From the NCBI RefSeq assembly GCF_030160635.1, contig NZ_BSOS01000008.1, positions 1 through 58,841 on the forward strand: a DNA stretch of 58,841 nt. Reading direction: 5' to 3'. How positions within the stretch are numbered: the stretch's first letter is position 1; each line of letters opens with the position of its first letter. Position numbers and translations under genes: made by a program. Below are positions 7,621 to 50,741 of this stretch, piece after piece. The DNA comes from Acidocella aquatica. Its GTDB lineage: Bacteria; Pseudomonadota; Alphaproteobacteria; Acetobacterales; Acetobacteraceae. Under the pieces are notes generated by a model. The model was not told the DNA's origin. It did no database searches and was given only the letters and a program-made list of their open reading frames with translations.

Positions 7621-7650
7621 TGCGTTATAATATGATATAAACTGTACGCA
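7621..7650. promoter_or_regulatory. 30-bp dyad operator, copy 1
   Basis: Half-site TGCGTT at 7621-7626 and inverted half-site TACGCA at 7645-7650, separated by 18 AT-rich bases. It lies 17 bp before the SDR start at 7668 and 41 bp before the divergent OYE gene. The same architecture recurs at six more sites in this window. Confidence 0.65.
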
Positions 7651-7667
7651 TTTCAAGGAAAAACGTC

Positions 7668-8420
7668 ATGACGTATAAATTCGAAAGCAAAGTTGCGCTT
7701 GTCACCGGCGCCAGCGGCGGCATTGGCCGTGCGACGGCGCTGGCCTTCGCGGCTTCGGGAGCGGCTGTGGTTGTGTCCGATGTGAATGACACCAGCGGCG
7801 AAGAGACCGCCGCGCTGATTGCGGCGGCGGGCGGCCGGGCCGTCTACCAGCATTGCAATGTTGCCGCCGAAGACGAGGTGAAGGCATTGGTTGCGCGGAC
7901 GGTGAGCGTGTTTGGCCGTCTCGACTTCGCGCACAACAACGCGGGCATCAACAACATGGGGGCCAATGAATACGATACGCCGGTTTGGGAGCGCAGCCTT
8001 GCCATCAACTTATCCGGCGTGATGTTCTGTATGCGCGAGGAAGCCGAAATCATGCTCGCGCAGGGCAAAGGGGCGATTGTCAACACATCCTCGATCAATG
8101 GTCTTGTCGGCAATGGCGCCCAGCCTGGCTACACCGCGACCAAGCATGCCGTGATCGGCCTCACCCGCCACGGCGCTTTGCGCTGGGCCAGGAGTGGTAT
8201 CCGGGTAAATGCTGTCTGCCCTGGCGTGATCGAAACCCCGATGACGGCCCCGCTTGCCGCCGATCCAGCAATGCGCAAGAAACTCGACGATTTGACGCCG
8301 ATGGGCCGCATGGGCATGGCCGGAGAGATCGCCGCGGCGGTGCTGTGGCTGTGTTCGGATCAAGCCAGCTTCGTAACGGGACATCCGTTGGTGGTGGATG
8401 GCGGTGCGACGGCGATGTAG
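7668..8420 (+). CDS. SDR family oxidoreductase
   Basis: Classical short-chain dehydrogenase/reductase, 250 residues. The Rossmann glycine motif TGASGGIG is at 13-20, NNAG at 90-93 and the catalytic set is Ser142-Tyr155-Lys159. Such enzymes oxidise or reduce hydroxy/keto groups with NAD(P). In a steroid cluster a hydroxysteroid or hydroxyacyl-CoA substrate is plausible but not provable from sequence. AAGGAAAAACGTC precedes the ATG. It ends in a stem-loop shared with the convergent Rieske gene. Confidence 0.85.
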   Translation: MTYKFESKVALVTGASGGIGRATALAFAASGAAVVVSDVNDTSGEETAALIAAAGGRAVYQHCNVAAEDEVKALVARTVSVFGRLDFAHNNAGINNMGANEYDTPVWERSLAINLSGVMFCMREEAEIMLAQGKGAIVNTSSINGLVGNGAQPGYTATKHAVIGLTRHGALRWARSGIRVNAVCPGVIETPMTAPLAADPAMRKKLDDLTPMGRMGMAGEIAAAVLWLCSDQASFVTGHPLVVDGGATAM

Positions 8421-8441
8421 CCGCTCAGGCCCAAAACAGAA

Positions 8442-8467
8442 CGCCCGGCCAGAGCGTTGGCCGGGCG
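8442..8467. terminator. Stem-loop between convergent genes
   Basis: Perfect 9-bp GC-rich stem (CGCCCGGCC, 8442-8450, pairing with 8459-8467) and an 8-base loop. It lies between the 3' ends of the SDR and the Rieske oxygenase. No U-run follows on either strand, so the terminator role is inferred from position and stem strength. Confidence 0.55.
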
Positions 8468-8497
8468 GGGGTGCGGGGTGCGTTCATGCGCCGCCGG

Positions 8498-9577
8498 TTA
8501 GGCGATCGTATCCCAGGGCGCGACCTTGGTACCTTTGGTAACGTAGCGGCCATCCACGCGCTTTTGGAACGCTTGCGCCTGTGCGCGCGGATTGTAGAAC
8601 TGGCGGTACCAGATTCTCACCTTGTCGAAGGGCCCGTCGCCGCGCGCCATCATCGGGTTGATGCAGGGGCGTTTGTTGGCCCATATCTCGAAATCCTGCG
8701 CGAAGGCGTCGACGCCGGCTTCCTCGTAGTTGCGGGCCAGCGCGATGTCCGCCGTGGTAGGCTGGGCATTGGCTGTCTTCACGAGCAGGCCGTACCAGAC
8801 CCTGACCCGGCCATCGTCGATCGGCGTGTGCGCGATCAGCATATGGGAAGGGTTGGCGCCGATCATCGCCGATTGGAGAATGCCGGGGCCAGTGTACCAG
8901 GTGTCGTTGGTCATCGGTTCCCCGGCGCCGGTCGCCAAAGTTTTGTGGCCGGCTGACAGCACCTGGCGGCAGACATGCCCGGCGAATTCGTTTTCGAACG
9001 AGACCATGTCGATGGAACCATGGACAGGCTCCAGATGCGCTTTGTCAGCGATGTTATCGACGACCTCCTGCGGGTGACAATCCAGGTCGCCCAGGGTTCG
9101 CACATTCCAGTTGACCCAGTGGAGGGCGTCATAATTCTCAAACGCGGGGAGGCCGTAATCGGGTTCGCCGCCCTCCGGGTCGTACCAGGTCCACAGGCAG
9201 CCCGCGCGTTCTATCACAGTCCAGGTCTTGAGGCGGGCTGCCTTCGGCGGGGAGGCTGGGGAATAGGGGATCTGATTACAGCGGCCATCGGGACCAAACC
9301 GCCAGCCGTGATAGGGGCAGCGGATATTTTCGCCCTCCATATGCATGCCATCCTTAATAACATAGGACGTCGTATTGCGGCCGAGATGTGTACCCATATG
9401 CGGGCAATAAGCCTCAACCATATAGGCCTGTCCGCTTTGGCCGCGGTAAATCACCATGTCCTCACCGAAATAGCGGACGGAAAAGACGCCACTTGCCAAA
9501 TCCTGCGAGCGCGCGGCCATGAACCAGCCGCGCGGGTAAGTAAATTCACCTAGACCGTAATCGCTGGTCTTTGCCAT
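8498..9577 (-). CDS. KshA-like Rieske oxygenase, terminal component (long Rieske linker)
   Basis: Rieske non-haem iron oxygenase of 359 residues in the 3-ketosteroid 9alpha-hydroxylase-like group. The 2Fe-2S ligands are Cys58, His60, Cys87 and His90. The mononuclear iron site is near Asp178, His181 and His186 (DKAHLEPVH). The C-terminal FEIWANKRP and WYRQFYN segments resemble KshA. The gap between the two halves of the Rieske motif is 26 residues, longer than the usual 16-18 and than the 17 in the second Rieske gene here. The start is the ATG at 9577 preceded by GAGGGAGG. No reductase gene lies nearby. The exact substrate position is unknown. Confidence 0.8.
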   Translation of the reverse strand: MAKTSDYGLGEFTYPRGWFMAARSQDLASGVFSVRYFGEDMVIYRGQSGQAYMVEAYCPHMGTHLGRNTTSYVIKDGMHMEGENIRCPYHGWRFGPDGRCNQIPYSPASPPKAARLKTWTVIERAGCLWTWYDPEGGEPDYGLPAFENYDALHWVNWNVRTLGDLDCHPQEVVDNIADKAHLEPVHGSIDMVSFENEFAGHVCRQVLSAGHKTLATGAGEPMTNDTWYTGPGILQSAMIGANPSHMLIAHTPIDDGRVRVWYGLLVKTANAQPTTADIALARNYEEAGVDAFAQDFEIWANKRPCINPMMARGDGPFDKVRIWYRQFYNPRAQAQAFQKRVDGRYVTKGTKVAPWDTIA

Positions 9578-9639
9578 GGTAGCCTCCCTCTGAAATTTGG
9601 GGGTCACCATAGCCGTAAGCGGATTAAATGTATAGATAC

Positions 9640-9712
9640 ATTGCGTATATAATTTATTTATACGAAATTTTATAGTTTAATGCGTATATTTATTTACAAT
9701 AAAATGCGCGCA
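9640..9712. promoter_or_regulatory. Variant dyads upstream of the Rieske gene
   Basis: Two relatives of the 30-bp operator. ATTGCGTATA at 9640-9649 faces TATACGAAAT at 9659-9668 (9 of 10 complementary positions, short spacer). TGCGTA at 9681-9686 faces CGCGCA at 9707-9712 (20-bp spacer). Both lie in the AT-rich region upstream of the minus-strand Rieske gene that starts at 9577. Confidence 0.5.
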
Positions 9713-9756
9713 TAGAATGTTTGTTGTTGTTCTAATCTGCGGGCAGTGACGGATGT

Positions 9757-10533
9757 TCAGTCCTCGAGATCGGGCGCCCAGGCAACGCCGTTGATATGGG
9801 CGCCGCCATCCACGAAAAGCGTGTTGCCGGTCAGGTAGCGCGCATCATCGCTGGCCAGAAACGCCGCGACGCCGCCTATATCGGCTTCAGGTGCGCCGAT
9901 TCTACCCATTGGATTGGCGGCGTTGATACGCTCGATCATGTCTGGTTGCTGGTTCATGATCCGGCGTGTCGAATCGGCCAGCGCCGCAGGGCAGATAATG
10001 TTGCAGCAAATCCCGAAAGACGCCCATTCGCGCGCCGCCGTGCGGGTCAGGGCGCGCAACGCCTCCTTGGCGACATTGTAATCTGCGCTGCCCATGTGCG
10101 CGTTGACGCCGTTGAGCGACGCCATGTTGATCACGCGCCCCCAGTTCTTGGCCTTCATGTTGGGCAGGGCGGCTGTCATCGTCCACTGGCTGGCGAACAC
10201 GCCCATCCGGAGCGATGTTTCGAACTGCGCATCGCTTTTGTGCTCGATCCGGGCCAGGCCCTGTCCGCGCCAGGCGTTGTTGACGAGGATATCGGCGGGT
10301 CCGGCGGCGGCCATCATGGCCAGGACGCTGGCTTTCTGGGTGATGTCGACAGGCAGGAAGCGCGCGTCGCCGCCGGTTAGCGAGATCTCCCTGGCGGTCT
10401 TGCGGCCAGCGGTTTCGTCAAAATCAGCGATAACGACGCGTGCGCCTTCCGCGGCAAAGCGCCGGGCGATGCCTTTGCCTATGCCGTTGGCCGATCCCGT
10501 GATAACCGCATTTCGTCCCGCCAATCTCGACAT
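9757..10533 (-). CDS. SDR family oxidoreductase (NNAW variant)
   Basis: Short-chain dehydrogenase of 258 residues. TGSANGIG forms the nucleotide-binding loop, Ser sits in MASLNG and the catalytic Tyr and Lys in DYNVAK. The structural NNAG motif reads NNAW. The start is set at the ATG at 10533 (MSRLAGRNAV), where the Rossmann strand normally begins; the longer frame to 10584 runs into AT-rich promoter DNA. It is divergent from the SDR at 10668, with a 30-bp dyad between them. Substrate unknown; probably a hydroxy/keto group of a steroid intermediate. Confidence 0.8.
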   Translation of the reverse strand: MSRLAGRNAVITGSANGIGKGIARRFAAEGARVVIADFDETAGRKTAREISLTGGDARFLPVDITQKASVLAMMAAAGPADILVNNAWRGQGLARIEHKSDAQFETSLRMGVFASQWTMTAALPNMKAKNWGRVINMASLNGVNAHMGSADYNVAKEALRALTRTAAREWASFGICCNIICPAALADSTRRIMNQQPDMIERINAANPMGRIGAPEADIGGVAAFLASDDARYLTGNTLFVDGGAHINGVAWAPDLED

Positions 10534-10615
10534 CGCCAGCCTCGCCTTTTTCACTGTTGTCCACCGGTTAAAAATATTGCGCAAATAATTTAATTAGTCT
10601 ATTTAAAAGTTGTTT

Positions 10616-10645
10616 TGCGTAATATAAACAGAATATAAAATCGCA
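10616..10645. promoter_or_regulatory. 30-bp dyad operator, copy 2
   Basis: TGCGTA at 10616-10621 and ATCGCA at 10640-10645, with an 18-bp AT-rich spacer. It lies between the divergent SDR genes starting at 10533 (minus) and 10668 (plus). Confidence 0.6.
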
Positions 10646-10667
10646 TTTATTGGTTTTGGAGGGGCGC

Positions 10668-11426
10668 ATGCGCGGCTTGCAAGGGAAAGTGGGGATTGTT
10701 GCCGGCGGCGGGCGCGGGATCGGCGCGGCGACAGCCAGGCGGCTTGCTGAAGAAGGGGTCTGTGTGGTGATTGGCGATATCGCCGAGGAGTGGGCGGTCA
10801 AGACCGCGGCGGAAATCTCCGCGGCGGGTGGTGCCGCGATCGGTGTGCAACTCGATGGCACAAGGGCTGACTCGCAGGCGGCGATTGTTGCCGCTGCGTT
10901 AGATAAATTTGGGACGCTCGATTTCTACCACTCCAACCTCGCCGGTGGAACCGAGGGAGATATCGATGCGCTCAACTGCACCGAGGAGGTGCTCGACCGC
11001 TCGTTCGCGCTCAATGCGAAAAGCCATTTCCTGGCGACGCAGGCGGCGCTGCCGGTGCTGATCGAGCGCGGCGGCGGCGCAATGATCTACACATCCTCGG
11101 GCGCGGCGATTGCAGGCAACCCGTTTCAGGTCGCCTATCCCATGGCAAAAAACGCCATCCATGCGCTTGTGCGTCATGTTGCGCGTAAATATGGCAAGAA
11201 GGGCATTCGAGCCAATGGCATTTGCCCTGGCTTGGTGTTGACGGAGGCGGTGGCCCAGCATCTCTCGGAGGATTATGTTCAGACCTCGCTGAAGGCGCTG
11301 CCGCATACCCGGCTTGGCAAACCAGAGGATATCGCCGGGGCTGTCGCGTTCCTCGCCTCGGGTGACGGCGAGTGGGTGAATGGCCAGGTGTGGCATGTAA
11401 ACGGCGGCTCGCTCCAGCGTGATTGA
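10668..11426 (+). CDS. SDR family oxidoreductase (altered NNAG region)
   Basis: Short-chain dehydrogenase of 252 residues starting at the ATG at 10668, with GGAGGGG 5-11 bp upstream. Features are AGGGRGIG near 12-19 as the cofactor loop, TSSGAAI carrying the catalytic Ser, and YPMAK carrying the Tyr and Lys. The segment that normally reads NNAG reads SNLAG. The C-terminus VWHVNGGS is typical. The enzyme should use NAD(P), but the substrate cannot be told. It is followed after 157 bp by another SDR with its own dyad. Confidence 0.8.
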   Translation: MRGLQGKVGIVAGGGRGIGAATARRLAEEGVCVVIGDIAEEWAVKTAAEISAAGGAAIGVQLDGTRADSQAAIVAAALDKFGTLDFYHSNLAGGTEGDIDALNCTEEVLDRSFALNAKSHFLATQAALPVLIERGGGAMIYTSSGAAIAGNPFQVAYPMAKNAIHALVRHVARKYGKKGIRANGICPGLVLTEAVAQHLSEDYVQTSLKALPHTRLGKPEDIAGAVAFLASGDGEWVNGQVWHVNGGSLQRD

Positions 11427-11496
11427 CCGGCTAACCGGGGTTGCGTGTCCGGGTGGTTTGCGCAAGATGCGTCTGGCTTGTTGATTTTTGATGATA

Positions 11497-11526
11497 TGCG
11501 TAAATCTTATGTGTTGTTTATCCGCA
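11497..11526. promoter_or_regulatory. 30-bp dyad operator, copy 3
   Basis: TGCGTA at 11497-11502 and TCCGCA at 11521-11526, spacer 18 bp. It lies 57 bp before the SDR start at 11584, in the AT-rich gap after the preceding gene. Confidence 0.6.
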
Positions 11527-11583
11527 TAAACCGTGTTATCAGCCAAAAGAATCTGGTTAGTATACAAAAATTGTGGAGAGGAA

Positions 11584-12456
11584 ATGACGACTCGCAAGGT
11601 TGCGCTGGTTACCGGAGCAAGCCGTGGCGCCGGGCGTGGTATTGCTCGCGGGTTCGGTGAGCTTGGCTACACCGTTTATGTCACGGGCCGGACGGTTTCT
11701 CCCGGTGATGCCAAGGGCTGGGACGGTTCGGTTCTGCCGGGCACGGTGGCGGAGGCAGCGCAGGAGGTGACTCGGGCTGGTGGCAGGGGGGTTGCTGTGG
11801 TTTGTGACCATGCCGATGATGCCCAGGTCGCGGCCTTGTTCGAACGGATCAGGAGCGAGGTTGGAAGACTTGATGTTCTGGTCAATAACGCCACCTACAT
11901 CCATCGGCAGTTGATCGAGAAAATGCCTTTCTGGGAAAAGGAGCTGGATGCGGTGCGCATCCTCGATGTGGGGTTGCGTTCGGCCTATGTGGCGAGCTGG
12001 CACGCGGCGCGCATGATGGTTCCCCAGGGCAGTGGGGTAATTGCCTTTGGCTCTTCGTTCGGTGGTACGTGTTATATGCACGGTCCCGCCTATGGCGCGC
12101 AGAAGGCGGGCGTTGACAAGCTGGCCCATGATATGGAGCATGATCTGCGCGGCACCGGCGTGATCGCTGTCTCGGTCTGGATGGGACCGCTGGTGACGGA
12201 GCGTTCGCTGATCGCGCGTGAGACCAATCCGGAGCAGTATGAAGATTTCCTCAAGGACGCAGAAAATCCTGAATTTACCGCTCATATAATCGATGCGATT
12301 TCGCGCGCGCCCAATCGCGGCGAGCTTTCCGGGCAAACGCTGGTCGGCGCAGAAATTGCCCGTGAGCTTAGCGTGACTGACCGCGGCAAGGAGCGCCCTT
12401 CCTACCGCGAAATGCTTGGCAGCCCGCGTCCCAAAAACCCTGCGGCGGTTTACTGA
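11584..12456 (+). CDS. SDR family oxidoreductase, DHRS1-like
   Basis: Extended-length SDR of 290 residues, resembling the DHRS1-like group (an extra stretch after the second strand with GWDGSVLPGT). The cofactor loop is TGASRGAGRG, NNAG reads NNAT, the catalytic Ser is in FGSSFGG and Tyr/Lys in YGAQK. The start is the ATG at 11584 after GGAGAGGAA; the longer frame enters the promoter. The C-terminal tail extends about 40 residues beyond a classical SDR. The substrate is unknown. It precedes the acyl-CoA ligase operon by 133 bp that shows no recognised promoter dyad, so read-through is possible. Confidence 0.8.
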   Translation: MTTRKVALVTGASRGAGRGIARGFGELGYTVYVTGRTVSPGDAKGWDGSVLPGTVAEAAQEVTRAGGRGVAVVCDHADDAQVAALFERIRSEVGRLDVLVNNATYIHRQLIEKMPFWEKELDAVRILDVGLRSAYVASWHAARMMVPQGSGVIAFGSSFGGTCYMHGPAYGAQKAGVDKLAHDMEHDLRGTGVIAVSVWMGPLVTERSLIARETNPEQYEDFLKDAENPEFTAHIIDAISRAPNRGELSGQTLVGAEIARELSVTDRGKERPSYREMLGSPRPKNPAAVY

Positions 12457-12589
12457 TGGCCGCGCGATTTCATTTTTTTGGCTTCGCGCCGAGCAGGATG
12501 CGGGAATACTGGAGTCGCGGGATGGAGGCGGCGGGCCATGAGCGTAGGCGGGATTGCCAGCGTGCTAAACACAGCATGGTGCATGCGTC

Positions 12590-14257
12590 ATGAATCGCAT
12601 TGATCCTGTTTTTGCCGAGGTTACGGCGGCTGGTTCACCGTTCGAAATTATTGAGCGCGATGGCCTGCGGCAGTTTGCTCATGCCCTGCCTGATCTTAAT
12701 CTGATGATCGAGGCCGCGCGGCGGCATGGCGACAAAACGTTCCTGGTCGATTTTTCGTCGGACGGGACTGAGCGGCGTCTGAGCTTCAATCAGATGTTTG
12801 CGTGGCGCGACCAGCTCGTTCCGATGCTTGGGATCAGGCGGGGCGAGCGCGTGGCAATCTGCATGCGCAACCGGGCGGAATGGATGGTCGCGTTTCTTGC
12901 GGTCATCAAGGCAGGCGGTGTTGCGGCCCTCATCAACAGCCGCGGTTCGCCTGCTGAGCTGGTGGCGATGGTTGAGGATGTCTCGCCATTACTGGTGCTG
13001 ATTGATAGCCGGCGCGCGGCCTTGCTTCGCGAGGGCGGCTATGCGGGCCGCATGCTTGATCTGACGAAGCCCTTCGATGCGGATGAGATTGACCGGCGGA
13101 CGCGCGCGCCGGCTGATGATCCAGGTGTTGCCAGCGCGTTGGACCCTTGCTCCATCCTTTTCACCTCAGGCACTACTGGGCGGGTTAAAGGAGTGGTGCT
13201 GACCCATCGCAGTCTGATCACCGGGTTGATGGCGACCCAACTTTCCGGCATGATGGTTCTGCACAACATGGCGCGCGCACACGGCGTGACGGTGCGGGAG
13301 ATCCTCGAGAAGCTGCCGCAGCAGGCGGTGTTGCTGGTCTATCCGCTGTTCCATGTCTCTGGGCTGGGTTCGACATTTCTATCGCCGCTGTTCGCGGGCT
13401 CCAAGGTCGTGATCATGCGCCGGTGGGACGCACAGGACGCGGTTCAGCTGATTGAGCGTGAACATATCACCCAGCTTACTGCGGTGCCGACGATGCTGTG
13501 GGATATGTTGCACCGTGCGACGCTGGGCGATGCGAATCTCTCCTCCCTGCGCAATATCGCCTCGGGCGGCCAGGCTTTTCCGGTCAACCTTCTGGACGAA
13601 ATTCGCTCGGCCTGCCCACAGGCCGTGATGGGCACGGGCTATGGCATGACCGAGGCCGCGGGGGCCATTGCCCAGGCTGTCGGAGAGGATTTCACTTGCA
13701 AGCCTGCATCAGCCGGACGGGTGCTGCCGTTGGCGGATGTGCGGATTGTCTCGCCGGATTTAAGCGAAATGCCAGCTGGGCAGAGCGGTGAGATTCAGGT
13801 GCGTGGTGCCATGGTCATGCAGGGCTACTGGGACCGGCCAGAGGACACCGCCGCCGCTTTTGCGGATGGCAGTTGGCTCCGCACGGGAGATATCGGCTAT
13901 GTGGATGAGGAAGGCTATATCTTCATCATCGACCGGATAAAGGACATGGTCATTTCGGGCGGTGAGAATATCTACTGCGCCGAGGTTGAGCGCGTGCTGG
14001 GCCAGATGCCGGGAATCAAGGAATGCGCGGCCTTCGGAATTCCCGATGAGCGCCTCGGGGAGCTTCTTGTCGCGGCCGTCGTGGCGGATAATGAGAACGA
14101 ACAAGCCGTCATCCATTGGGTGGCCGAGAGGCTTGCCCGCTATAAGGCGCCTGGACGTGTTGCCTTTAGCAAGGAGCGGCTGCCGCGCAATCATCTGAGC
14201 AAGGTGGATAAAGTGGCCTTGCGCCAGGCGTGGCCAAAATTGATTGGAGAAAAATGA
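12590..14257 (+). CDS. AMP-dependent acyl-CoA synthetase (class I adenylate-forming)
   Basis: Adenylate-forming ligase of 555 residues that would activate a carboxylic acid to its CoA thioester. Visible features are the phosphate-binding loop FTSGTTGRVKG near 185-195, a GYGMTE motif, TGDIGY and the C-terminal hinge and lysine region RNHLSKVDK. The segment between the P-loop and the PLFHVSG motif carries an insertion of about 25 residues. It is distinct from the FadD3-like ligase at 34.7 kb, so the locus has two ligases. Its place in an operon with Rieske and amidase genes suggests an early acid, for example a side-chain or conjugate-derived acid, but that is inference. Confidence 0.85.
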   Translation: MNRIDPVFAEVTAAGSPFEIIERDGLRQFAHALPDLNLMIEAARRHGDKTFLVDFSSDGTERRLSFNQMFAWRDQLVPMLGIRRGERVAICMRNRAEWMVAFLAVIKAGGVAALINSRGSPAELVAMVEDVSPLLVLIDSRRAALLREGGYAGRMLDLTKPFDADEIDRRTRAPADDPGVASALDPCSILFTSGTTGRVKGVVLTHRSLITGLMATQLSGMMVLHNMARAHGVTVREILEKLPQQAVLLVYPLFHVSGLGSTFLSPLFAGSKVVIMRRWDAQDAVQLIEREHITQLTAVPTMLWDMLHRATLGDANLSSLRNIASGGQAFPVNLLDEIRSACPQAVMGTGYGMTEAAGAIAQAVGEDFTCKPASAGRVLPLADVRIVSPDLSEMPAGQSGEIQVRGAMVMQGYWDRPEDTAAAFADGSWLRTGDIGYVDEEGYIFIIDRIKDMVISGGENIYCAEVERVLGQMPGIKECAAFGIPDERLGELLVAAVVADNENEQAVIHWVAERLARYKAPGRVAFSKERLPRNHLSKVDKVALRQAWPKLIGEK

Positions 14258-14258
14258 T

Positions 14259-15128
14259 ATGGCAATGCCAACGGATATTAAGATCATTGATTGCATGCTG
14301 GGGATTCCTGAAGCAGAAGACCGCTCGGACTGGTTTGCCGCGTTCCGCCCGCTTATCAGGGATGAGCAGACGCTGAAGCAATTCTCCATGCCCGCGCAAT
14401 ATATGTTCAAGGATATTCCACAAGCGGGCGGCGTGGATGATTTTGTGAAATGGACCGTTGAGCAGATGGATCGGTTCAATGTTGAAAGGGCGTTGGTTGG
14501 TTGGAACGCAAGTGCCACCTCCTACCGTGCGAAGGAGAAACATGGGAACCGCTTTTTCTTTGACTTGCCGTGCGATCCCAACAAGGGCATGGAGGAAGTA
14601 CGCCGTATCAAGCGCATTCATGCTGAAGTTGGTTTGTCGGCGATCAGTATTTTTCCGGCGGGCACATTTCCGCAGATTCCCATCAATCATAAATACATGT
14701 TTCCACTTTATGCCTGCGCTGAGGAACTGGGACTTCCCGTTCTGCTCAATGTAGGAATTCCAGGTCCGCGGATTCCGATGGAGGCGCAAAAAGTCGAGCA
14801 TCTCGATGAAATATGCTGGTTTTTTCCAAATCTGAAAATCGTGATGCGTCACGGAGCGGAACCTTGGGAGGCGCTGGCCGTGAAGCTGATGCTCAAATGG
14901 CCGAATCTTTATTATTCGACCAGTGCCTTCGCGCCCAAGCATTACCCGAAAGCGATCATCGACTTTGCGAATACGCGCGGCGCCGAAAAGATCATCTATG
15001 CCGGGTATTTCCCGATGGGGCTGAGCCTCGAGCGCATCTTCGGCGATATGGTGAATGTTCCGTTCAAGGATGAGGTTTGGCCAAAGTTCTTGCGTGAGAA
15101 TGCCATCAACGTTTTCAATCTTAAATAA
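14259..15128 (+). CDS. Amidohydrolase-2-like TIM-barrel protein lacking usual metal ligands
   Basis: Protein of 290 residues resembling the amidohydrolase-2 (COG2159) TIM barrel. Evidence is the N-terminal IIDCMLGIPEAED strand and the later segments LLNVGIPGP and VMRHGAEPW. The start is the ATG at 14259, one base after the stop of the ligase gene, with GGAGA upstream. The N-terminal His-x-His metal motif reads CML, and the usual GSDYP-type Asp motif reads AGYFP. Only a His in MRHGAEPW remains recognisable, so normal metal hydrolysis is doubtful. It may be a decarboxylase- or hydratase-like relative or a non-catalytic partner. Confidence 0.65.
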   Translation: MAMPTDIKIIDCMLGIPEAEDRSDWFAAFRPLIRDEQTLKQFSMPAQYMFKDIPQAGGVDDFVKWTVEQMDRFNVERALVGWNASATSYRAKEKHGNRFFFDLPCDPNKGMEEVRRIKRIHAEVGLSAISIFPAGTFPQIPINHKYMFPLYACAEELGLPVLLNVGIPGPRIPMEAQKVEHLDEICWFFPNLKIVMRHGAEPWEALAVKLMLKWPNLYYSTSAFAPKHYPKAIIDFANTRGAEKIIYAGYFPMGLSLERIFGDMVNVPFKDEVWPKFLRENAINVFNLK

Positions 15129-20370: not shown

Positions 20371-21009
20371 GGCATAACCTTGCAGCCAGCGGCTGGAAGC
20401 GGGTGATTCGCATGTTTGCGCTTCATGAGCCGTTTTCCTCCTAAATGGGTTATGGCAGGCTTGCCTCAAGCCAACCCGTGCGTCAACGTGTGAATGTTGA
20501 AATTTTTTGGGTGTTTCTTATGTTCACCAAAAAAATATCGGTATTTATACTATATTTGCACATTTTTTTATAGAAAATTTACGCATTATGTGTTTTTGTG
20601 GCCAGTTAGAGTTGTGCGGATTGGGGTGTGGCGGCCATAAATGTTGGCAGCGATGCGGCGCCGATGCGCGCTTGAGACTAAAATCTTATAATTCGTAAAA
20701 AATATATCATAAGATACGCATATAATGAATTGAAACCCGATGGATACTTAGATAATACTCGTTCTGTTCGGTTTTGCGTGATCGCGCGGCGTGCCGGGGT
20801 GTTCGTTGCTCAGGCGCTCCGTTGCGGGTTGACGAGGCCGGTGTTGTGATGAACAGCCGGTTCGCCGAGCCAGGCTGCTTGCCGCAAGATGAGAGCAATA
20901 TGTGATTGTGTTGAGCCGGCGGTTCAATGTCATCGCATGAAATTGCTCGCTAAAACATGGGATAGAGCGTTCATCTGCTCGATGAACACTCTACGGGAGG
21001 GGCTGCATA
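20371..21009. other. Long divergent promoter region without a gene
   Basis: About 640 bp between the minus-strand flavoprotein and the plus-strand acyl-CoA dehydrogenases. Bases 20510-20730 are AT-rich and hold operator-like half-sites (TTTACGCAT at 20578-20586 and a dyad at 20692-20720). Bases 20750-20900 are GC-rich with no convincing coding signature. I see no RNA gene. GGGAGGGG before 21010 is the ribosome-binding site of the next gene. Confidence 0.5.
20692..20720. promoter_or_regulatory. Variant dyad operator (17-bp spacer)
   Basis: TTCGTA at 20692-20697 and TACGCA at 20715-20720, spacer 17 bp, AT-rich. It has the same half-sites as the 30-bp operators but is one base shorter. Confidence 0.45.
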
Positions 21010-24390: not shown

Positions 24391-24661
24391 GGGGAAACGC
24401 CGGCAGGGGCTTGCGCTGACCGTTCGCGGTGGGAGATTTCTGAGGATATACCTGTGTAAGGCGCGGGGCTGGACCGTTGATACAAGCCCGGCAGATGAAG
24501 CGAGAATTCTTGTCGCGCTGTTTCTGCGGGCATCGTTTCGCATGGTGCTGGACCAGCGGCCTGGCTTCGGTTATGGATAAAAATGGGGATTTCGTCTTTC
24601 CAGAATTGAAAATCTCAGTTAACTGTAGAGAAATTAGTTGGAATAGCATGGTCATGTGCCA

Positions 24662-25144
24662 ATGAAATTGCGCAAAGGCAGACGTATTAGCACCGTAGGC
24701 ATTGATGATGTTGATAAGGGGATTATTGATCTCCTCACGGTCAATGGCCGCGCGACGAATCAGGAAATTGCGGCGCGGCTATCGGTGACGCCTACGACGG
24801 TTTCTTCCCGGCTGAACCGCATGGAAAAACAAAAAATCATGAAGGTCGTGGCGGTAACGGATTTCGCCGCGCATGGCTTCAACGTGATCATGGCGATAGG
24901 GGTCCGGGTTGCTGGCCGGCCCGTGATGGAGGTTGCGCAGGCCCTGGCGGCGCTGCCGGAAGTGCTTAGCGTCAATATCACCCATGGCAATCATGATATT
25001 GAGATTTTGGTGGTTTTGCATGATTTTGAAGAGGTGAGTGTTTTTCTGAATGAGCATATTCGGCTCGTGCCGGGCATTGAAGAGTTAAGTCCAGGGCTGG
25101 CGGCGGAGATTAAAAAATATGAATTCAATATTGCACCATTATGA
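24662..25144 (+). CDS. Lrp/AsnC-family regulator 1
   Basis: Feast/famine-type transcriptional regulator of 160 residues. The N-terminal winged helix-turn-helix covers about 14-62 (TNQEIAARLSVTPTTVSSRL) and the RAM ligand-binding domain about 75-150. The ATG at 24662 is chosen; an in-frame GTG lies two codons upstream. It overlaps the next regulator by ATGA, so the two are made together and may form mixed oligomers. Small acids or CoA intermediates are plausible effectors, by inference. It is a candidate for binding the 30-bp dyads. Confidence 0.87.
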   Translation: MKLRKGRRISTVGIDDVDKGIIDLLTVNGRATNQEIAARLSVTPTTVSSRLNRMEKQKIMKVVAVTDFAAHGFNVIMAIGVRVAGRPVMEVAQALAALPEVLSVNITHGNHDIEILVVLHDFEEVSVFLNEHIRLVPGIEELSPGLAAEIKKYEFNIAPL

Positions 25145-25656
25145 CTAACCATATGCTGGACGATCTGGACCGCAAGATCATTGAAAGTTTTAGCCGCGAC
25201 GGCCGGGCTTCCAACAGGCAAATTGCTTTGGAGCTTGATGTAACGGAAGGTACGATCCGTACCCGGATCAAACGTTTGCAGGCGCGCCGGCTGATTCATT
25301 TCACGGCGGTGCGCAGCTACCGTTTCGCGGGTTCGCCCAATCTGGTGTTGTTGGGGATTCATTGTGAGCAAATGAAGGTGCCGAAAATCTCCCAGGCCCT
25401 TGTTGAGATGCCTGAGATTGGGTGCGTGATCGAAATGCTCGGGCGTTACAGCATCCTGGCGATGGGGTTGTTTACCAGCCTGGAGGAAGTCCACGAAATC
25501 ATTCTGGAACGTATCCGTTTGCTGCCTGGCGTGAAGCATGTCGAAAGCTCCATTGCGGTTCATAACATCAAATATCATAGCTCCATCGCCCGGATTACAA
25601 GCCGACAGATACAAGATGCCGAAAAGAACGGGGAAGACAGCGAAGAGCGGGGATGA
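25141..25656 (+). CDS. Lrp/AsnC-family regulator 2
   Basis: Second Lrp/AsnC regulator, 171 residues. The helix-turn-helix is at about 7-55 (SNRQIALELDVTEGTIRTRI) and a RAM domain follows. The start overlaps the first regulator by ATGA. The two proteins are divergent, so this is an old pair rather than a recent duplication. It converges with the minus-strand SDR at 25728. No TetR-type KstR repressor is present in the window. Confidence 0.87.
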   Translation: MTNHMLDDLDRKIIESFSRDGRASNRQIALELDVTEGTIRTRIKRLQARRLIHFTAVRSYRFAGSPNLVLLGIHCEQMKVPKISQALVEMPEIGCVIEMLGRYSILAMGLFTSLEEVHEIILERIRLLPGVKHVESSIAVHNIKYHSSIARITSRQIQDAEKNGEDSEERG

Positions 25657-44020: not shown

Positions 44021-44050
44021 TGCGTTATTAATCAATTATTATAAAGCGAA
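44021..44050. promoter_or_regulatory. 30-bp dyad operator, copy 4 (weak right half)
   Basis: TGCGTT at 44021-44026 and AGCGAA at 44045-44050, spacer 18 bp, all AT-rich between. The right half departs from the consensus. A further lone TGCGTT is at 44084-44089. The site lies upstream of the hsaC-led operon. Confidence 0.45.
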
Positions 44051-44126
44051 TTAAACTAAAAATAACTGATAAAATTAATGAAATGCGTTGTTTTTGGTTT
44101 TATTATGAATTGTCTTGAGTGGGAAA

Positions 44127-45596: not shown

Positions 45597-45696
45597 CTCA
45601 GGACGGCTCCCTGGTCTTTTGCGGGCCAGCCGCCATGATCAAGACAAGCTCCTTCTGCCCGAGGGGCATTTCATGGGGCGCGATCATGATGGCCGA

Positions 45697-46902
45697 TTAG
45701 AGGAACGGGAAAGCGAGCGGAATGCCGAGGAGCCCGTTGGCGAGGTCCGGTCCCATATTGTTCGGGTCGTTGGCCACATGCGCGCGCGCCGCATTAAGGT
45801 CGAGCCAGGGCTGGATGATCGCGCTGTGCATATAGATGGCGCGGCCGCCCAACAGGGGCAGAAGCGCATCGACCAGGGCCGCGCAGCGGCGCGCGACGGA
45901 GGAGGATTGGAAGCGGTAGAGCTGGCGGGTGGCGATATCGATCTCGCCCCCGGTTTCCAGTGTCTGGATGATGTTATCGAAGTTGCGCCGGAGTACGGCT
46001 TCCATCTCGTCCAGCTGCGCATAAGCGGTGGCGACGGCGTTCAGCAAAATCGGGTCGGTCTTTGAGATTTTGCCGGTATTGGTGGAGATGCGCGATTGCG
46101 CGATCTCCAGCGCGGCGTTGATGGCGGCGCGCGCACCGCCAAGGGCAGCGGTGGAGACGAGACGCAGGAAGAGCTGTGCCCAGGGTATGCGGTAGAGCGG
46201 CGCGTTGTTTTCCACCTGGCCGGGGTTCTTGCACAGAAAGCCATCAACGGCCTTATGAGTGCGGTAGTCCGGCACGAAGGCGCGCTCCACCACGATATCC
46301 TGGCTGCCGGTGCCCTGCAGGCCGAACGTGTCCCAGGTATTATCGATTTTGTAGTCTGTGCGTGACACCAGGAAGGTGCGCATGTCCGGCGGGTCGCCTT
46401 CCTTCAGCGGTGGGATCATCGCGCCCAGGAGCACCCATTGGCAATGATTGCAGCCGGAGGAGAAACCCCAGCGGCCGGAGAGGTGGAAGCCCCCCTCGGT
46501 ACGCTCCACCTTACCGACGGGCTGGTAGGAAGAGGAGACCAGGATGCTGTCATCCGCGCTCCAAACATCGCGTTGCGCCTGGTCGTGGAACAACGCCAGC
46601 TCGTAGGGATGGCCGCCGACAACGCCGTAGACCCAGCCGGTGGACATGCACCCCTCGGCCAGTAGCTTCTGAATCTCGAAAAATACGTTGGGATGCATTT
46701 CATACCCGCCCCAGCGCTTGGGCTGCAGCACCCGGAAAAAGCCCGCCGCCTGCATTTCGGTGATGGTCTCGTCAGGGATTTTGTGTTCGGCGGTGGCGCA
46801 CCTCGCGCGCGATTTCAGCACTGGGATCATCGCCCTTGCCCGCTCGATCAGCTCCGCCGGGGCCGGTGTGCGGTCGGCTACGATCCTTTGTATATTCGTC
46901 AT
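45697..46902 (-). CDS. hsaA: HsaA-like flavin-dependent 3-HSA hydroxylase
   Basis: Acyl-CoA dehydrogenase-fold, FADH2-dependent monooxygenase of 401 residues that ortho-hydroxylates the phenolic A ring of the 9,10-secosteroid. Segments GFFRVLQPKRWGGYE, STGWVYGVVGGHPYELALF, GFSSGCNHCQW and GLQGTGSQDIVVE match HsaA. It needs reduced flavin, probably from the flavin reductase at 34139. Two dyads precede it (46964-46994 and 47065-47094), shared with the divergent SDR. Confidence 0.88.
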   Translation of the reverse strand: MTNIQRIVADRTPAPAELIERARAMIPVLKSRARCATAEHKIPDETITEMQAAGFFRVLQPKRWGGYEMHPNVFFEIQKLLAEGCMSTGWVYGVVGGHPYELALFHDQAQRDVWSADDSILVSSSYQPVGKVERTEGGFHLSGRWGFSSGCNHCQWVLLGAMIPPLKEGDPPDMRTFLVSRTDYKIDNTWDTFGLQGTGSQDIVVERAFVPDYRTHKAVDGFLCKNPGQVENNAPLYRIPWAQLFLRLVSTAALGGARAAINAALEIAQSRISTNTGKISKTDPILLNAVATAYAQLDEMEAVLRRNFDNIIQTLETGGEIDIATRQLYRFQSSSVARRCAALVDALLPLLGGRAIYMHSAIIQPWLDLNAARAHVANDPNNMGPDLANGLLGIPLAFPFL

Positions 46903-46963
46903 GAAACTACCTTCACTAAAATTGGGCGCGCCTGAAAGTCAAATTCCGCCCGAGATTATGTTC

Positions 46964-46994
46964 TTCGTAGATATTATATGGTATAAAATACGCA
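46964..46994. promoter_or_regulatory. Variant dyad operator (19-bp spacer)
   Basis: TTCGTA at 46964-46969 and TACGCA at 46989-46994, spacer 19 bp. It lies 62 bp before the hsaA start. Confidence 0.45.
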
Positions 46995-47064
46995 AATGAT
47001 CAATATTTATTTCCAGAAACCGATTATCGTGCAGCTTGATCTAGGGCGGATGTGAGTGTTTACA

Positions 47065-47094
47065 TGCGTTTAAATTAAAATATTATATAACGCA
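47065..47094. promoter_or_regulatory. 30-bp dyad operator, copy 5 (perfect arms)
   Basis: ATGCGTT at 47064-47070 pairs perfectly with AACGCAT at 47089-47095; the core half-sites are 18 bp apart. It lies between hsaA and the divergent SDR that starts at 47186. Confidence 0.65.
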
Positions 47095-47185
47095 TATAGC
47101 TGTTGAATGAAGCTAAACATGAGTATTTTGCAAAAATACCGGAATTTTGTTTTGTTGTTTGGCTGGAGTCTGGGTGGAGGGTGAT

Positions 47186-47938
47186 TTGGCGGCAAAGAAC
47201 TTGGCGGGCAAGGTGGCCTTGGTGACGGGTGGTACACGCGGAATTGGACGGGCGATCGCGGAGACGCTGACCGCCGCGGGCGTGAAAACCTATGTATGCG
47301 GGCGCACGCCGGGGGATTTGCCGGCTACATTGAGCTTTCTGGCTTGCGACGTGCGCGACCCGGAAGCGGTGAGGGCGATGATCAACGAGATCGCCGCGCG
47401 CGAGGGCGGGCTGGATTTTGTTGTCAACAATGCTGGCGGCTCGCCGCACGCGGAGGCGGCCCTGGCCTCGCCGCGCTTTTCCGAGCGGATCGTACAGCTC
47501 AATCTGCTTGCACCTTTGCATGTTTCTCAGGCGGCTTATCCTTACCTGAAGGCCCGGGGCGGAGCGATTGTGAACATTGCCTCCGTTTCGGCGGTGCGGC
47601 CTTCGCCCGGCACCTCGGTTTACGCCGCCGCCAAGGCGGGGCTGCTGGGGCTTTCGCGCAGCCTGGCGCATGAATGGGGGCCGGAGATTCGTGTCAACGT
47701 GTTGATTCTGGGCTATATTGAGACCGGGACCACCGATGCCACTTATGGCGATGCGGAAAAACAAGCGGCGATTGGCCGGAATATCGCTGCCGGGCGGCTC
47801 GGCAGAGCGGAAGAAGTGGCAGAGGTGGTGGTATTTCTGCTCTCGCCCGCCGCATCATATATCACGGGCGCTGAACTTCAGGTGCATGGCGGTGGTGAGC
47901 GGCCGCCATTTTTGGACATCGTGAAGAGCGAGGGCTGA
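47186..47938 (+). CDS. SDR family oxidoreductase
   Basis: Short SDR of 250 residues. TGGTRGIGRA forms the cofactor loop, NNAGGSP is intact, Ser is in NIASVSA and Tyr/Lys in YAAAK. TTG at 47186 is preferred as start because GTGGAGGG lies 6-13 bp upstream and the Rossmann strand begins a few residues later. The stretch between the first and second strand is shorter than usual (YVCGRTPGDLPA). It is probably a hydroxysteroid or hydroxyacyl dehydrogenase. It is divergent from hsaA. Confidence 0.8.
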   Translation: MAAKNLAGKVALVTGGTRGIGRAIAETLTAAGVKTYVCGRTPGDLPATLSFLACDVRDPEAVRAMINEIAAREGGLDFVVNNAGGSPHAEAALASPRFSERIVQLNLLAPLHVSQAAYPYLKARGGAIVNIASVSAVRPSPGTSVYAAAKAGLLGLSRSLAHEWGPEIRVNVLILGYIETGTTDATYGDAEKQAAIGRNIAAGRLGRAEEVAEVVVFLLSPAASYITGAELQVHGGGERPPFLDIVKSEG

Positions 47939-48019
47939 GGTAGATGAGGTGGATACGAAAGCCATGGCTGAAGCCGGCAGCGCGAAGCCCGCGCGGCGTC
48001 AGGCGTTGGCCGAAGGGCG

Positions 48020-48100
48020 TTAGCAACAGTAGCTGCCGCCATTGGCGACGGGAATGGAACCGGTGACGAAGGCGGCGTGGCCTTCAGGCCTGTTGCTCAT
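48020..48100 (-). pseudogene. C-terminal remnant of an SDR, coupled to kstD by ATGA
   Basis: A 26-codon frame reads GHAAFVTGSIPVANGGSY, the C-terminal signature of an SDR (FVTG...V-GG). Its ATG overlaps the kstD stop by ATGA, so ribosomes finishing kstD could translate it. The rest of the gene is absent. Either a deletion fused the tail of a lost SDR to kstD, or a short peptide has been kept. Confidence 0.5.
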
Positions 48101-49791
48101 TGCGCGTTGCCTTCAGTCATGTGCGTTGCAGCGATATAGCCGAAGGTGAGGGCAGGGCCGATGGTGACGCCAGCACCTGGATAGCTTTCGCCCATTGCCG
48201 AGGCGGCGTTGTTACCAATGGCGTAAAGTCCCTCAATTGCCTGACCGTCCTTGCCGATCACCCGCGACAGCGCGTCAGTGCGCAGGCCGCCATTGGTACC
48301 GATATCGCCGGGATAAATCGGCATCGCGTAGAACGGCCCCTGATCAAGCGGCCGCAGACAGGGGTTGGGCGTGACTCGCGGGTCGCCGTACATCTTGTCA
48401 TAGGTGGCTTCGCCGCGATGGAAAGCAGGGTCATTGCCGTTTGCGGCGCTGGCGTTGAAGTGCTCCACCGTCTCACTCAACGCCGCGGCCGGCACACCTA
48501 TTGCCCGGGCGAGATCAGGGATCGTGCGCCCCTTGCGCAGGATAGACCTGGCCGCCCTGCTTTGCAGCCAGTTGGGAACCAAGGGGTAGAGTGGGCCTGC
48601 AGGGTAGGAATGCCGGTAGCGGTGGTCGAATACGAACCATGTCGGGTTGGCATCGCCCTGTTCGGCCTGGCGCCGCGCCATCAATTGGCCGACGATATGG
48701 TAGGACGCGGCCTCGTTCAGATAGCGTTTGCCATTTTGCGCGACCATGATGCTGCCGGGCAGAGCGCGCTCGATTGTGCACAGGCGGCCGCGATCCTCAC
48801 CCGGTACGTAGAAGACCGGGGCGGCCCAGGCTGAATGCATGTTCATGAGGCTAGCGCCGGCGGCAACGCCTGCGCGGATGCCATCGCCGGTGTTGCCGCT
48901 GGTTCCGCCCGAGAGCTGCGCGTTTGGATAAAGCGGTGCATAGTGATGCCGCATCGTCTTGTTCTTGTCAAAACCGCCGGCGGCGAGGATTACGCCCTTG
49001 CGCGCACGGATGCGCAGATTTTTGCCCTCATGGCGAACGACCGCGCCGGTAATCTTGCCGTTTTCGAGGATAAGTTCCTCCAGCGGGCTCTCCAGCCAAA
49101 GCGGAACGCCCTGCCGGTTGAGCGCGAGCCGTAGCCCGCCCGCCAGCGCATTGCCCAGGGTTAGCCGCCTGTCCTTGCGTGAGGTAAGGCGGAACGGCAG
49201 GTCCAGCCAATAGCGCGCGAGGCTTCGCGCGAGGTGGCGCCACCAGCCCGGCGCACGGAACAACAGCATGTAGGTTTCGTCGAAATGCCAGTTCAGATAG
49301 CCAAACAGTGAAGCGGCCGGTGAGGCAAAGCGCAACGTGCGCACGTCATTATTCAGATTACGGCCGTCAAGCGGCAAAGGCATATGGGTACGATAGCCTG
49401 CCGCTGATCCGCCAGGGTTCTCGGCATGGTAGTCGGGATAGGGAAACGCCTGGTATTCAATCTCGGTGTTCGCGCTCAGCCAGCGCAGCATCTGGGATGC
49501 GTTCCCAACATAGGCGCGGATATTCTCGTCCGGCACGTTGGATGCGGAAAGCTTGCGGACATAGGCGAACGCCGCCTCCTCATTGTCCTCGAATCCAGCG
49601 GCCTGCGCCTGATCGCTGGCGGGAATCCAGATTCCTCCACCCGAGGTCGCAGAGGTTCCGCCCCAGAGCGGCGTTTTCTCGACAATGAGAGTTTCTGCGT
49701 GGCGACTCGCCGCGACCAGGGCGGCAAGCATGCCGCCCGCGCCCGAGCCGACGACCAGCACATCAAGCTCTTTGTCCCAATTTTCTACCAT
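48097..49791 (-). CDS. kstD: 3-Ketosteroid delta1-dehydrogenase
   Basis: FAD-dependent KstD of 564 residues that introduces the 1,2 double bond into ring A, priming ring B opening. The FAD loop is VVGSGAGGM (14-22), GGTSATSGGGIWIP is the KstD signature and YPDYHAENPGGSAAG is typical. Tyr537 in SYPGAGVTIGPALTFGYIA matches the active-site Tyr near the C-terminus. CTGGAG lies upstream of the ATG. It is followed by the SDR remnant and preceded by another SDR 48 bp away in the same direction. Confidence 0.9.
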   Translation of the reverse strand: MVENWDKELDVLVVGSGAGGMLAALVAASRHAETLIVEKTPLWGGTSATSGGGIWIPASDQAQAAGFEDNEEAAFAYVRKLSASNVPDENIRAYVGNASQMLRWLSANTEIEYQAFPYPDYHAENPGGSAAGYRTHMPLPLDGRNLNNDVRTLRFASPAASLFGYLNWHFDETYMLLFRAPGWWRHLARSLARYWLDLPFRLTSRKDRRLTLGNALAGGLRLALNRQGVPLWLESPLEELILENGKITGAVVRHEGKNLRIRARKGVILAAGGFDKNKTMRHHYAPLYPNAQLSGGTSGNTGDGIRAGVAAGASLMNMHSAWAAPVFYVPGEDRGRLCTIERALPGSIMVAQNGKRYLNEAASYHIVGQLMARRQAEQGDANPTWFVFDHRYRHSYPAGPLYPLVPNWLQSRAARSILRKGRTIPDLARAIGVPAAALSETVEHFNASAANGNDPAFHRGEATYDKMYGDPRVTPNPCLRPLDQGPFYAMPIYPGDIGTNGGLRTDALSRVIGKDGQAIEGLYAIGNNAASAMGESYPGAGVTIGPALTFGYIAATHMTEGNAQ

Positions 49792-49839
49792 GCCGGCGCT
49801 CCAGTGTAGAGGGTTACGGGCAAGCGTTGCCGCGTGCCG

Positions 49840-50613
49840 TTAAGAGGGAAGATAGAGCTGGGCGGCTTTGCCGCCGTCCACCGGCAGCGCCGTGCCGGTG
49901 ATGTAACTGGCGGCGTCCGAGAGCATGAAGACGATTGCCTCAGCCAGCTCTTCCGGCCTGCCGCCGCGGCCCATGGGGATGGCTTCCATGGTCCTGGCGG
50001 CGATCTCGGGGACTTTGGCCGAAAAATCTTTTGTGCCGGCGGTCTGGACCTGCCCGGGCACGATGGCGTTGACGCGGATTCCGCTGCGCGCGCCTTCCAT
50101 CGCGGCGACCGCGGTGAACTGGATCATGGCGGCTTTGGAGGCGGAGTAGCTTGACATAAATGGGGCTGCGCGGATGCCGCATGTCGAGGCGATGTTAACG
50201 ATCGCCCCTTTGCCAGCCGCGGCCATGATGTTCATCGCGGCCTTGGTCGCCACGAAAACCGCTTCCGTGTTGACCGTGAAATCCTTGCGCCAATGGTCGA
50301 GAGAGAGGCGGTTGATCGGCGCGTAATGAGTGGACATGGCGTTGTTTACAAGCATGTCGAGCCTGCCGTGACGGTGCGCGATATCTTCGATCATGGCCGC
50401 GAGGGAGGCCAGATCGGAAACGTCAAGCTGTACAGCCTCAACCTTGCCGCCTTCGGCCTCGATCCGTTCCTTGGCGTTGGTGAGCATTATCTGCCGGCGC
50501 CCGCAAATGACAACATGCGCCCCGCGGCGCGCCAGAAGCGATGCCGTGGCGAGACCGATGCCATCACTGCCCCCGGTCACAACCGCGACCTGTCCGTTGA
50601 AATCCTGGTTCAT
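49840..50613 (-). CDS. SDR family oxidoreductase
   Basis: Classical SDR of 257 residues starting at the ATG at 50613 (MNQDFNGQVAVV). TGGSDGIGLA is the cofactor loop, NNAM replaces NNAG, Ser is in NIASTCG and Tyr/Lys in YSASK; the C-terminus is VDGG. The longer frame to 50850 runs through the operator region and is not used. It shares an operon with kstD and is divergent from the SDR at 50775, with two 30-bp dyads between them. A hydroxysteroid substrate is plausible. Confidence 0.82.
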   Translation of the reverse strand: MNQDFNGQVAVVTGGSDGIGLATASLLARRGAHVVICGRRQIMLTNAKERIEAEGGKVEAVQLDVSDLASLAAMIEDIAHRHGRLDMLVNNAMSTHYAPINRLSLDHWRKDFTVNTEAVFVATKAAMNIMAAAGKGAIVNIASTCGIRAAPFMSSYSASKAAMIQFTAVAAMEGARSGIRVNAIVPGQVQTAGTKDFSAKVPEIAARTMEAIPMGRGGRPEELAEAIVFMLSDAASYITGTALPVDGGKAAQLYLPS

Positions 50614-50647
50614 GGCGTTGTTCTTACCTGTTCTCATCAGTCTATGT

Positions 50648-50677
50648 TGTGTAGAATTCGTATAAAAGTAAAACGCA
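50648..50677. promoter_or_regulatory. 30-bp dyad operator, copy 6
   Basis: TGTGTA at 50648-50653 and AACGCA at 50672-50677, spacer 18 bp. It lies 35 bp from the minus-strand SDR start at 50613. Confidence 0.55.
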
Positions 50678-50711
50678 GTTGACAAAACAAAACCGATTAT
50701 GTCAACTTGTT

Positions 50712-50741
50712 TGCGTAGAAATAAAATTATAATGTTACGAA
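50712..50741. promoter_or_regulatory. 30-bp dyad operator, copy 7
   Basis: TGCGTA at 50712-50717 and TACGAA at 50736-50741, spacer 18 bp. It lies 34 bp before the SDR start at 50775. This gap therefore holds one dyad per divergent gene. Confidence 0.6.

What the first reader, a model, noticed from the sequence alone, without database searches (positions are those of the whole stretch)
7621..50741. A conserved 30-bp inverted repeat controls the island: a candidate new operator
Seven sites show the same geometry, TGCG(T)(A/T) then 18 AT-rich bases then the reverse-complement half-site: 7621-7650, 10616-10645, 11497-11526, 44021-44050, 47065-47094, 50648-50677 and 50712-50741. Relatives with spacers of 13, 17, 19 and 20 lie at 9642-9666, 20692-20720, 46964-46994 and 9681-9712. 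All are in promoter gaps of catabolic genes. I found none in the restriction/IS region, nor in the other gaps that I scanned. A half-turn-related spacing with two separated hexamers suggests two regulator dimers or an oligomer, unlike the known KstR operator.
Basis: seen in the sequence. Interest (0 to 1): 0.88.

Follow-up and report, generated by a model that had tools for sequence, protein, structure and literature searches.

The report
Shared operator of bacterial steroid-degradation genes
The steroid-breakdown genes in this bacterium carry a repeated DNA switch site that also sits in front of matching genes in distant steroid-degrading bacteria that have the same linked pair of regulator genes, so it is probably the landing site of an undescribed regulator of steroid breakdown.

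Summary
All seven N18 sites are at the stated places, though only two have two perfect half-sites. In 22 gaps of the window, six N18 sites with at most one mismatch compare with 0.05 per shuffle. Genome-wide, 6 of 24 such places fall in this window, 1.5% of the genome; with two mismatches allowed the genome as a whole shows no excess.

TGCGTA-N18-TACGCA also lies before steroid genes in Azospirillum, Nitrospirillum, Caulobacter, Sphingobium, Novosphingobium and Sphingomonas genomes that carry homologues of the window's Lrp/AsnC genes. In 27 further genomes, 21 hsaC-type loci carry it: 26 pairs at N18, none at N17 or N19. HsaC-type and AsnC1-type genes co-occur (33 and 31 of 328 genomes, both in 27).

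Best reading: the AsnC1/AsnC2 pair binds it and represses the pathway until a steroid metabolite appears. The operator is well supported; the binder only by association; repression only by promoter overlap at some promoters. A 39/63-bp higher-order spacing in the first set was not reproduced at those values in the second.

The parts
7621..7650 (.). N18 operator (both half-sites perfect) between OYE-family gene (-) and SDR gene (+, ATG 7668)
   Evidence: the matching gap in G016 has an N18 site (L071:10072)
9618..9712 (.). half-site cluster upstream of the KshA-like gene (-): TGCGTA 9642, TACGAA 9661, TGCGTA 9681; the N13 and N20 pairings themselves are not supported
   Evidence: the matching gap in G016 has an N18 site (L071:8020)
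10616..10645 (.). N18 operator, right half ATCGCA, between divergent SDR genes
   Evidence: further half-site 10578-10583, 38 bp away
11497..11526 (.). N18 operator, right half TCCGCA, upstream of an SDR gene
   Evidence: no counterpart seen in G016
20692..20720 (.). N17 operator variant between an OYE-type gene (-) and the IpdE2-like acyl-CoA dehydrogenase gene (+)
   Evidence: no counterpart seen in G016
44021..44089 (.). upstream of hsaC (-): half-site TGCGTT 44021 (weak N18 partner AGCGAA 44045-44050) and half-site TGCGTT 44084 at 63 bp
46964..46994 (.). N19 operator variant in the hsaA/SDR gap
   Evidence: the G016 hsaA gap has an N19 site too (L073:15071)
47065..47094 (.). N18 operator (both half-sites perfect) in the hsaA/SDR gap
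50648..50677 (.). N18 operator (left half TGTGTA) between divergent SDR genes
50712..50741 (.). N18 operator (right half TACGAA), 64 bp from the previous one
51679..51723 (.). everted half-site pair TACGAA/TGCGTT, 39 bp centre to centre, upstream of the DUF1302 gene
24656..25144 (+). AsnC1, Lrp/AsnC-type regulator, candidate operator-binding subunit
   Evidence: Pfam HTH_AsnC-type 1.6e-12 and AsnC_trans_reg 2e-10; homologues
25141..25656 (+). AsnC2, Lrp/AsnC-type regulator overlapping AsnC1 by 4 bases
   Evidence: Pfam HTH_AsnC-type 3.8e-12; 4-base overlap also in the 10 relatives listed

Best explanation
The site is the operator of a pathway-wide regulator of steroid-ring catabolism. Consensus: T(T/A)TGCGTA-N18-TACGCA(T/A)A with an AT-rich spacer. 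The regulator is most likely the product of the two overlapping Lrp/AsnC genes (AsnC1 24656-25144, AsnC2 25141-25656), acting together. Without steroid the protein sits across core promoters (a TTGAC -35-like box starts 9 bp before TGCGTA at many hsaA promoters) and blocks transcription; a pathway metabolite (perhaps a CoA ester) bound to the RAM domains would release it. Shown: the sites, their non-random spacing, their conservation in front of related genes, and their co-occurrence with the regulator genes. Inferred: binding by the pair, repression, the effector, and whether the pair forms a hetero-oligomer.
For: (1) Enrichment in the window. (2) Loci fetched only by AsnC1 homology in Azospirillum, Nitrospirillum, Caulobacter and sphingomonads carry sites next to hsaA/hsaC/SDR/OYE/KshA homologues. 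(3) Exact TGCGTAN18TACGCA: 23 places against 2 for the reversed control in 17 AsnC1-carrying genomes (two of these are near-identical Nitrospirillum strains); 7 against 22 in the 145 relatives other than G000 and G016 (my sums); Fisher P 4e-7. (4) Second set, 27 hsaC-type loci from further genomes: 21 with an N18 site; of 34 inverted pairs with gaps of 4 to 59, 26 are at N18, none at N17 or N19. (5) In 328 genomes of the family of G159: HsaC 33 (E<=1e-80), AsnC1 31 (E<=1e-37, a cut-off set), both 27, Fisher P 1e-29. (6) AsnC1 and AsnC2 are the only DNA-binding regulators recognised among 53 of the 160 listed window ORFs (49 by Pfam, 4 by NCBIfam only). (7) Sites lie 56 to 174 bp upstream of AsnC1 homologues in L052 and L057 and L109. 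(8) TTGAC starts exactly 9 bp before TGCGTA in 17 of the 21 second-set loci and in 6 of 49 operators of the first collection; in five of those six a TATATT/TATATA/TATATG box follows inside the spacer.
Against: No binding or expression data. Co-occurrence cannot separate the pair from another regulator that travels with steroid clusters. Sites occur in L150 and L169, whose genomes (G659, G710) have only weaker AsnC1 homologues (39-41%). Six of 27 second-set loci lack a site by the criteria used. In the first set L054, L060, L063 and L064 show none in the stretch scanned, and L052 showed no AsnC2 match. The exact palindrome is absent from G000 and G016 themselves, and the looser N17-19 pattern matches 71 of 147 relatives, so it is not diagnostic alone. 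No clear site precedes AsnC1 in the window. In most second-set promoters I see no convincing -10 box in the spacer. Closely related loci (for example L162, L163, L165, L166) are not independent. Published Lrp sites are 13-17 bp (PMC2995911, passages), not 30.
Confidence: 0.72

Rival explanations
1. The operator is real but is bound by another regulator (TetR, MarR or AraC type) encoded elsewhere and shared by steroid degraders; the Lrp/AsnC pair has another target.
For: Steroid clusters can have TetR regulators, e.g. EdcR (PMC8700777, passages). Sites persist in L150 and L169, whose genomes have only weaker AsnC1 homologues.
Against: No other DNA-binding regulator recognised among the 53 window ORFs scanned. 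EdcR palindrome (<=2 mismatches) and recalled KstR consensus absent. An AsnC1 homologue was found in 33 of 33 HsaC genomes at E<=1e-20, a cut-off that may include paralogues.
Confidence: 0.2
2. The pair binds the site as an activator instead of a repressor.
For: Lrp-type proteins can activate (recalled); in many second-set promoters no clear -10 box is seen in the expected register (sequences).
Against: At the Sphingobium-type promoters the operator follows a TTGAC -35-like box and covers the -10 region. At several promoters it lies 17 to about 55 bp from the start codon, though farther at others.
Confidence: 0.22
3. The motif is a by-product of AT-rich promoters and not an operator.
For: Spacers are AT-rich and the window's sites lie in AT-rich gaps.
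Against: Shuffles of the same gaps; 80 permuted half-sites, none with more than one inverted or everted pair at any gap except two frame-shifted versions of the motif; the sharp N18 peak in the second set.
Confidence: 0.03

Closest known systems
Lrp/AsnC operators with several sites (archaeal BarR, Ss-LrpB; PMC10201364 and PMC2995911, passages seen)
   Same: AT-rich centre, inverted half-sites, clusters of sites in promoter regions, candidate binder of the same family
   Different: Those are 13-17 bp sites at two or three helical turns; here two TGCGTA half-sites are 24 bp apart with an 18-bp spacer, and two overlapping paralogues are present
EdcR (TetR) operator of estrogen genes in Caenibius tardaugens (PMC8700777, passages seen)
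   Same: Steroid catabolism; palindrome overlapping the -10 box; repressor
   Different: TnnCnnTACnAnTnGTAnnGnnA is absent from this window; different regulator family
KstR/KstR2 (TetR) of actinobacteria (PMC8399759 and PMC6678751, passages seen; consensus recalled)
   Same: Control of steroid/HIP catabolism by a repressor released by pathway intermediates
   Different: Recalled consensus TNNAACNNGTTNNA absent from the window; regulator family differs
TeiR/TesR of Comamonas testosteroni (PMC8399759 and PMC6678751, passages seen)
   Same: Regulator of proteobacterial steroid genes
   Different: The passages name no operator like this one; the window's candidates are Lrp/AsnC proteins
Two contiguous Lrp/AsnC genes in the Sphingobium sp. 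Chol11 bile-salt cluster (NCHOL11_RS15865/15860; PMC12882949, passages seen)
   Same: Probably the same gene pair: locus L060, titled Novosphingobium sp. Chol11, carries both
   Different: The passages name no operator for them and mention amino-acid metabolism

Membership tests
Lrp/AsnC regulators (AsnC1, AsnC2) | AsnC-type HTH plus RAM/AsnC ligand-binding domain | tested here: met
   Pfam hits above cut-off for both; PDB matches to Lrp-family chains such as LrpA 1i1g, AsnC 2cg4 and Lrp 2gqq
Curated Lrp/AsnC equivalogs of NCBIfam | score above an equivalog cut-off | tested here: not met
   best 52 and 66 bits against cut-offs of 180-250
Lrp/AsnC-type DNA sites | 13-17 bp imperfect palindrome per dimer | tested here: not met
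   conserved unit is 30 bp with an 18-bp spacer
Lrp/AsnC-type DNA sites | several sites per promoter at two or three helical turns | tested here: inconclusive
   39 and 63 bp enriched in set 1 but 0 there in set 2, where 41 and 65 occur 5 times each
Lrp/AsnC-type DNA sites | bound by the regulator | not testable with these tools
   needs gel shift or footprint
EdcR operator | TnnCnnTACnAnTnGTAnnGnnA | tested here: not met
   0 matches with up to 2 mismatches
KstR operator | TNNAACNNGTTNNA (recalled) | tested here: not met
   0 exact matches

The most novel reading that the evidence does not exclude
The two overlapping paralogues form an obligate hetero-oligomer that wraps promoter DNA. One subunit type reads TGCGTA; heterodimers alternate in orientation about every three helical turns, so the read half-sites alternate at 24 and about 39 bp and repeat about every 63 bp. 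This would be a two-paralogue version of Lrp wrapping, used as the steroid-catabolism switch across Alphaproteobacteria.
Probability: 0.22. Interest if true: 0.78.

Novelty: new variant of a known kind. Interest (0 to 1): 0.64.

Why it matters
The paper searches made (in an open-access library only) turned up no operator or master regulator for the ring-degradation (hsaA/hsaC) part of steroid catabolism in Alphaproteobacteria; [quoted passage not shown] A conserved site with a candidate regulator would let regulons be predicted in estrogen-, bile-acid- and sterol-degrading bacteria, suggest new steroid-sensing elements, and test how two linked Lrp/AsnC paralogues share one operator.

Tried and rejected
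Rejected: the N13 and N20 spacings as functional variants (no peak). The genome's N20 match at C25:4660 as part of this regulon: it lies before a BigR-like ArsR gene. A strict 39/63-bp lattice as a general rule: in set 1, threshold 8, 7 everted pairs at 39+-1 and 6 same-direction pairs at 63+-1, against 0.8 and 0.4 after random displacement (its half-site matrix came from N18 sites that partly lie in the same loci); in set 2 none, and 41 and 65 five times each. HTH conservation as proof of which subunit reads the site: HTH against RAM identity between two groups is 0.50/0.42 for AsnC1 and 0.66/0.33 for AsnC2 (14 and 13 sequences against 4 each), which if anything points to AsnC2; undecided. 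Structure prediction was not run.

Rows dropped before counts: sites with spacer GC above 0.5 or 0.45 (and the second-set part of 62); operators within 120 bases of a locus end or in surroundings above 50% GC; half-sites in surroundings above 50% GC; distant loci L065-L068 from all sets; L051 as a near copy of L050; L141, L143 and L144 from the second set because their genomes had been used; G665, G779 and G786, HsaC genomes for which no locus was returned; five repeat copies in G156 not fetched. L097-L135, used, were themselves fetched for having N17-19 sites; leave them out.
Full report
What was checked. The window is contig C8 of a 4.03-Mb bacterial genome. Its gene content is a steroid-degradation island: KshA-type oxygenases, 3-ketosteroid-dehydrogenase-like flavoproteins, HsaA and HsaC, an IpdE2-like acyl-CoA dehydrogenase, a steroid-CoA-ligase-like gene, SDRs, and DUF1302/DUF1329/MMPL genes. 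All sites of the finding are present at the given coordinates. Two of the seven N18 sites match TGCGTW-N18-WACGCA perfectly, four have one mismatch and one (44021) has two.

More than chance. Across the genome 24 places match the N18 pattern with at most one mismatch and 6 of them lie in this 1.5% of the genome (P about 1e-6). With two mismatches the genome as a whole shows 251 against 342 for the reversed control, so the signal is local. In 22 window gaps (4,220 bases) 6 sites compare with a shuffle mean of 0.05. The six lie in gaps between catabolic genes.

Conservation, first set. Loci were fetched with AsnC1 alone as query (20 loci, 16 with 47-61% identity, 4 more distant), plus 120 kb of contig C56 of G016, the one same-genus genome among those searched with a close (77%) homologue. 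N17-N19 sites with AT-rich spacers appear beside homologues of the window's steroid genes in Azospirillum, Nitrospirillum, Caulobacter, Sphingobium, Sphingomonas and others, often between hsaC and hsaA. In G016, where gene order differs, the counterparts of six of the window's eight promoter regions with sites keep one; none was seen for those of 11497 and 20692. Not every locus shows one: L054, L060, L063 and L064 have none in the stretch scanned, though sites elsewhere in their genomes came up. AsnC2 was found beside AsnC1 in 15 of the 16 closer loci (not in L052). Of 45 exact N17-19 places examined in the 15 named-record genomes, 27 are N18, and 18 of those 27 have a homologue of a window protein (BLASTP E<=1e-10) as a neighbour, against 5 of the 18 with N17 or N19 (my count).

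Controls. In 17 AsnC1-carrying genomes the exact palindrome occurs 23 times and the reversed control 2 times (G000 and G016 have 0 exact). In the 145 other relatives it occurs 7 times and the control 22 times. Fisher P is 4e-7. The looser TGCGTW-N17-19-WACGCA is less telling: it matches 71 of 147 relatives. Among 80 permuted hexamers, none gives more than one inverted or everted pair at any distance except two frame-shifted copies of the motif.

Conservation, second set. The hsaC-type gene was then sought in 328 genomes of the family of G159: 33 genomes, 30 loci returned. Leaving out three genomes used before, 21 of 27 loci carry an N18 site with at most one mismatch, although their HsaC is 43-50% identical to the window's (66% in L142). 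Of 34 inverted pairs with gaps of 4 to 59, 26 are at 18 and none at 17 or 19. Related loci are not independent, so the count overstates the number of events.

Who binds it. AsnC1 and AsnC2 overlap by 4 bases, as in the ten relatives listed, and are Lrp/AsnC proteins that reach no curated equivalog cut-off. In 328 genomes HsaC and AsnC1 co-occur (33 and 31, both 27; Fisher P 1e-29; the AsnC1 cut-off was set). In the window's own family, 3 of 397 genomes have AsnC1 at 1e-30 and all three are among the four with HsaC at 1e-90. This supports the pair as the binder but does not prove it. In the 328, four genomes have AsnC1 without HsaC at these cut-offs and six the reverse.

How it may work. TTGAC starts exactly 9 bp before TGCGTA in 17 of 21 second-set loci and in 6 of 49 operators of the first collection. 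In five of those six a TATATT-like box lies 18 bp further on, inside the spacer, so a bound protein would cover the core promoter: repression is the natural reading. In the second set a -10 box is not obvious. Effector and derepression are inferred.

Higher order. In the first set, half-sites are enriched at 39 bp (everted) and 63 bp (same direction) from each other; with the 24-bp pair these add to 63 bp, six turns, and the midpoints fall three turns apart, a spacing reported for Lrp-type dimers (two or three turns; PMC2995911, passages). In the window, 50648-50741 holds two operators 64 bp apart and 44021/44084 are two half-sites 63 bp apart. The second set did not repeat the exact numbers: 0 at 39/63, 5 each at 41 and 65, and the sequences with this arrangement come from near-identical promoters. 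The lattice, and the hetero-oligomer drawn from it, is therefore a hypothesis.

Novelty. Paper searches found no description of this operator; one 2026 paper mentions two contiguous Lrp/AsnC genes in the Chol11 bile-salt cluster, and the passages seen give them no operator. Two reviews searched by term hold no mention of AsnC or Lrp. Subscription journals are mostly outside that library.

Noticed in passing
L017:4660-4691 (G000 contig C25): Near-perfect AT-rich palindrome TGCGTATATATTCG...CGTATATACGCA right before a BigR-like ArsR gene (NCBIfam BigR 84 bits, below its cut-off of 155), followed by further genes; probably that regulator's own operator.
   Followed up: partly
597-4380: Type I restriction R subunit followed by a YgjP-like metallopeptidase gene next to the steroid island.
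   Followed up: no
L109:2964-2992 and L112:2906-2935: AsnC1- or AsnC2-like genes of only 43% identity sit beside the same operator in G157 and G161. In G157 this is a different contig from L059's AsnC1, so paralogous copies may share the site.
   Followed up: no
second-set loci such as L146-L149, L151, L159-L163, L165-L167, L170: A longer conserved string, TTGACGATTTGCGTA and mostly CAATTGACGATTTGCGTA, lies at the operator before hsaA, longer than a -35 box and half-site need.
   Followed up: no
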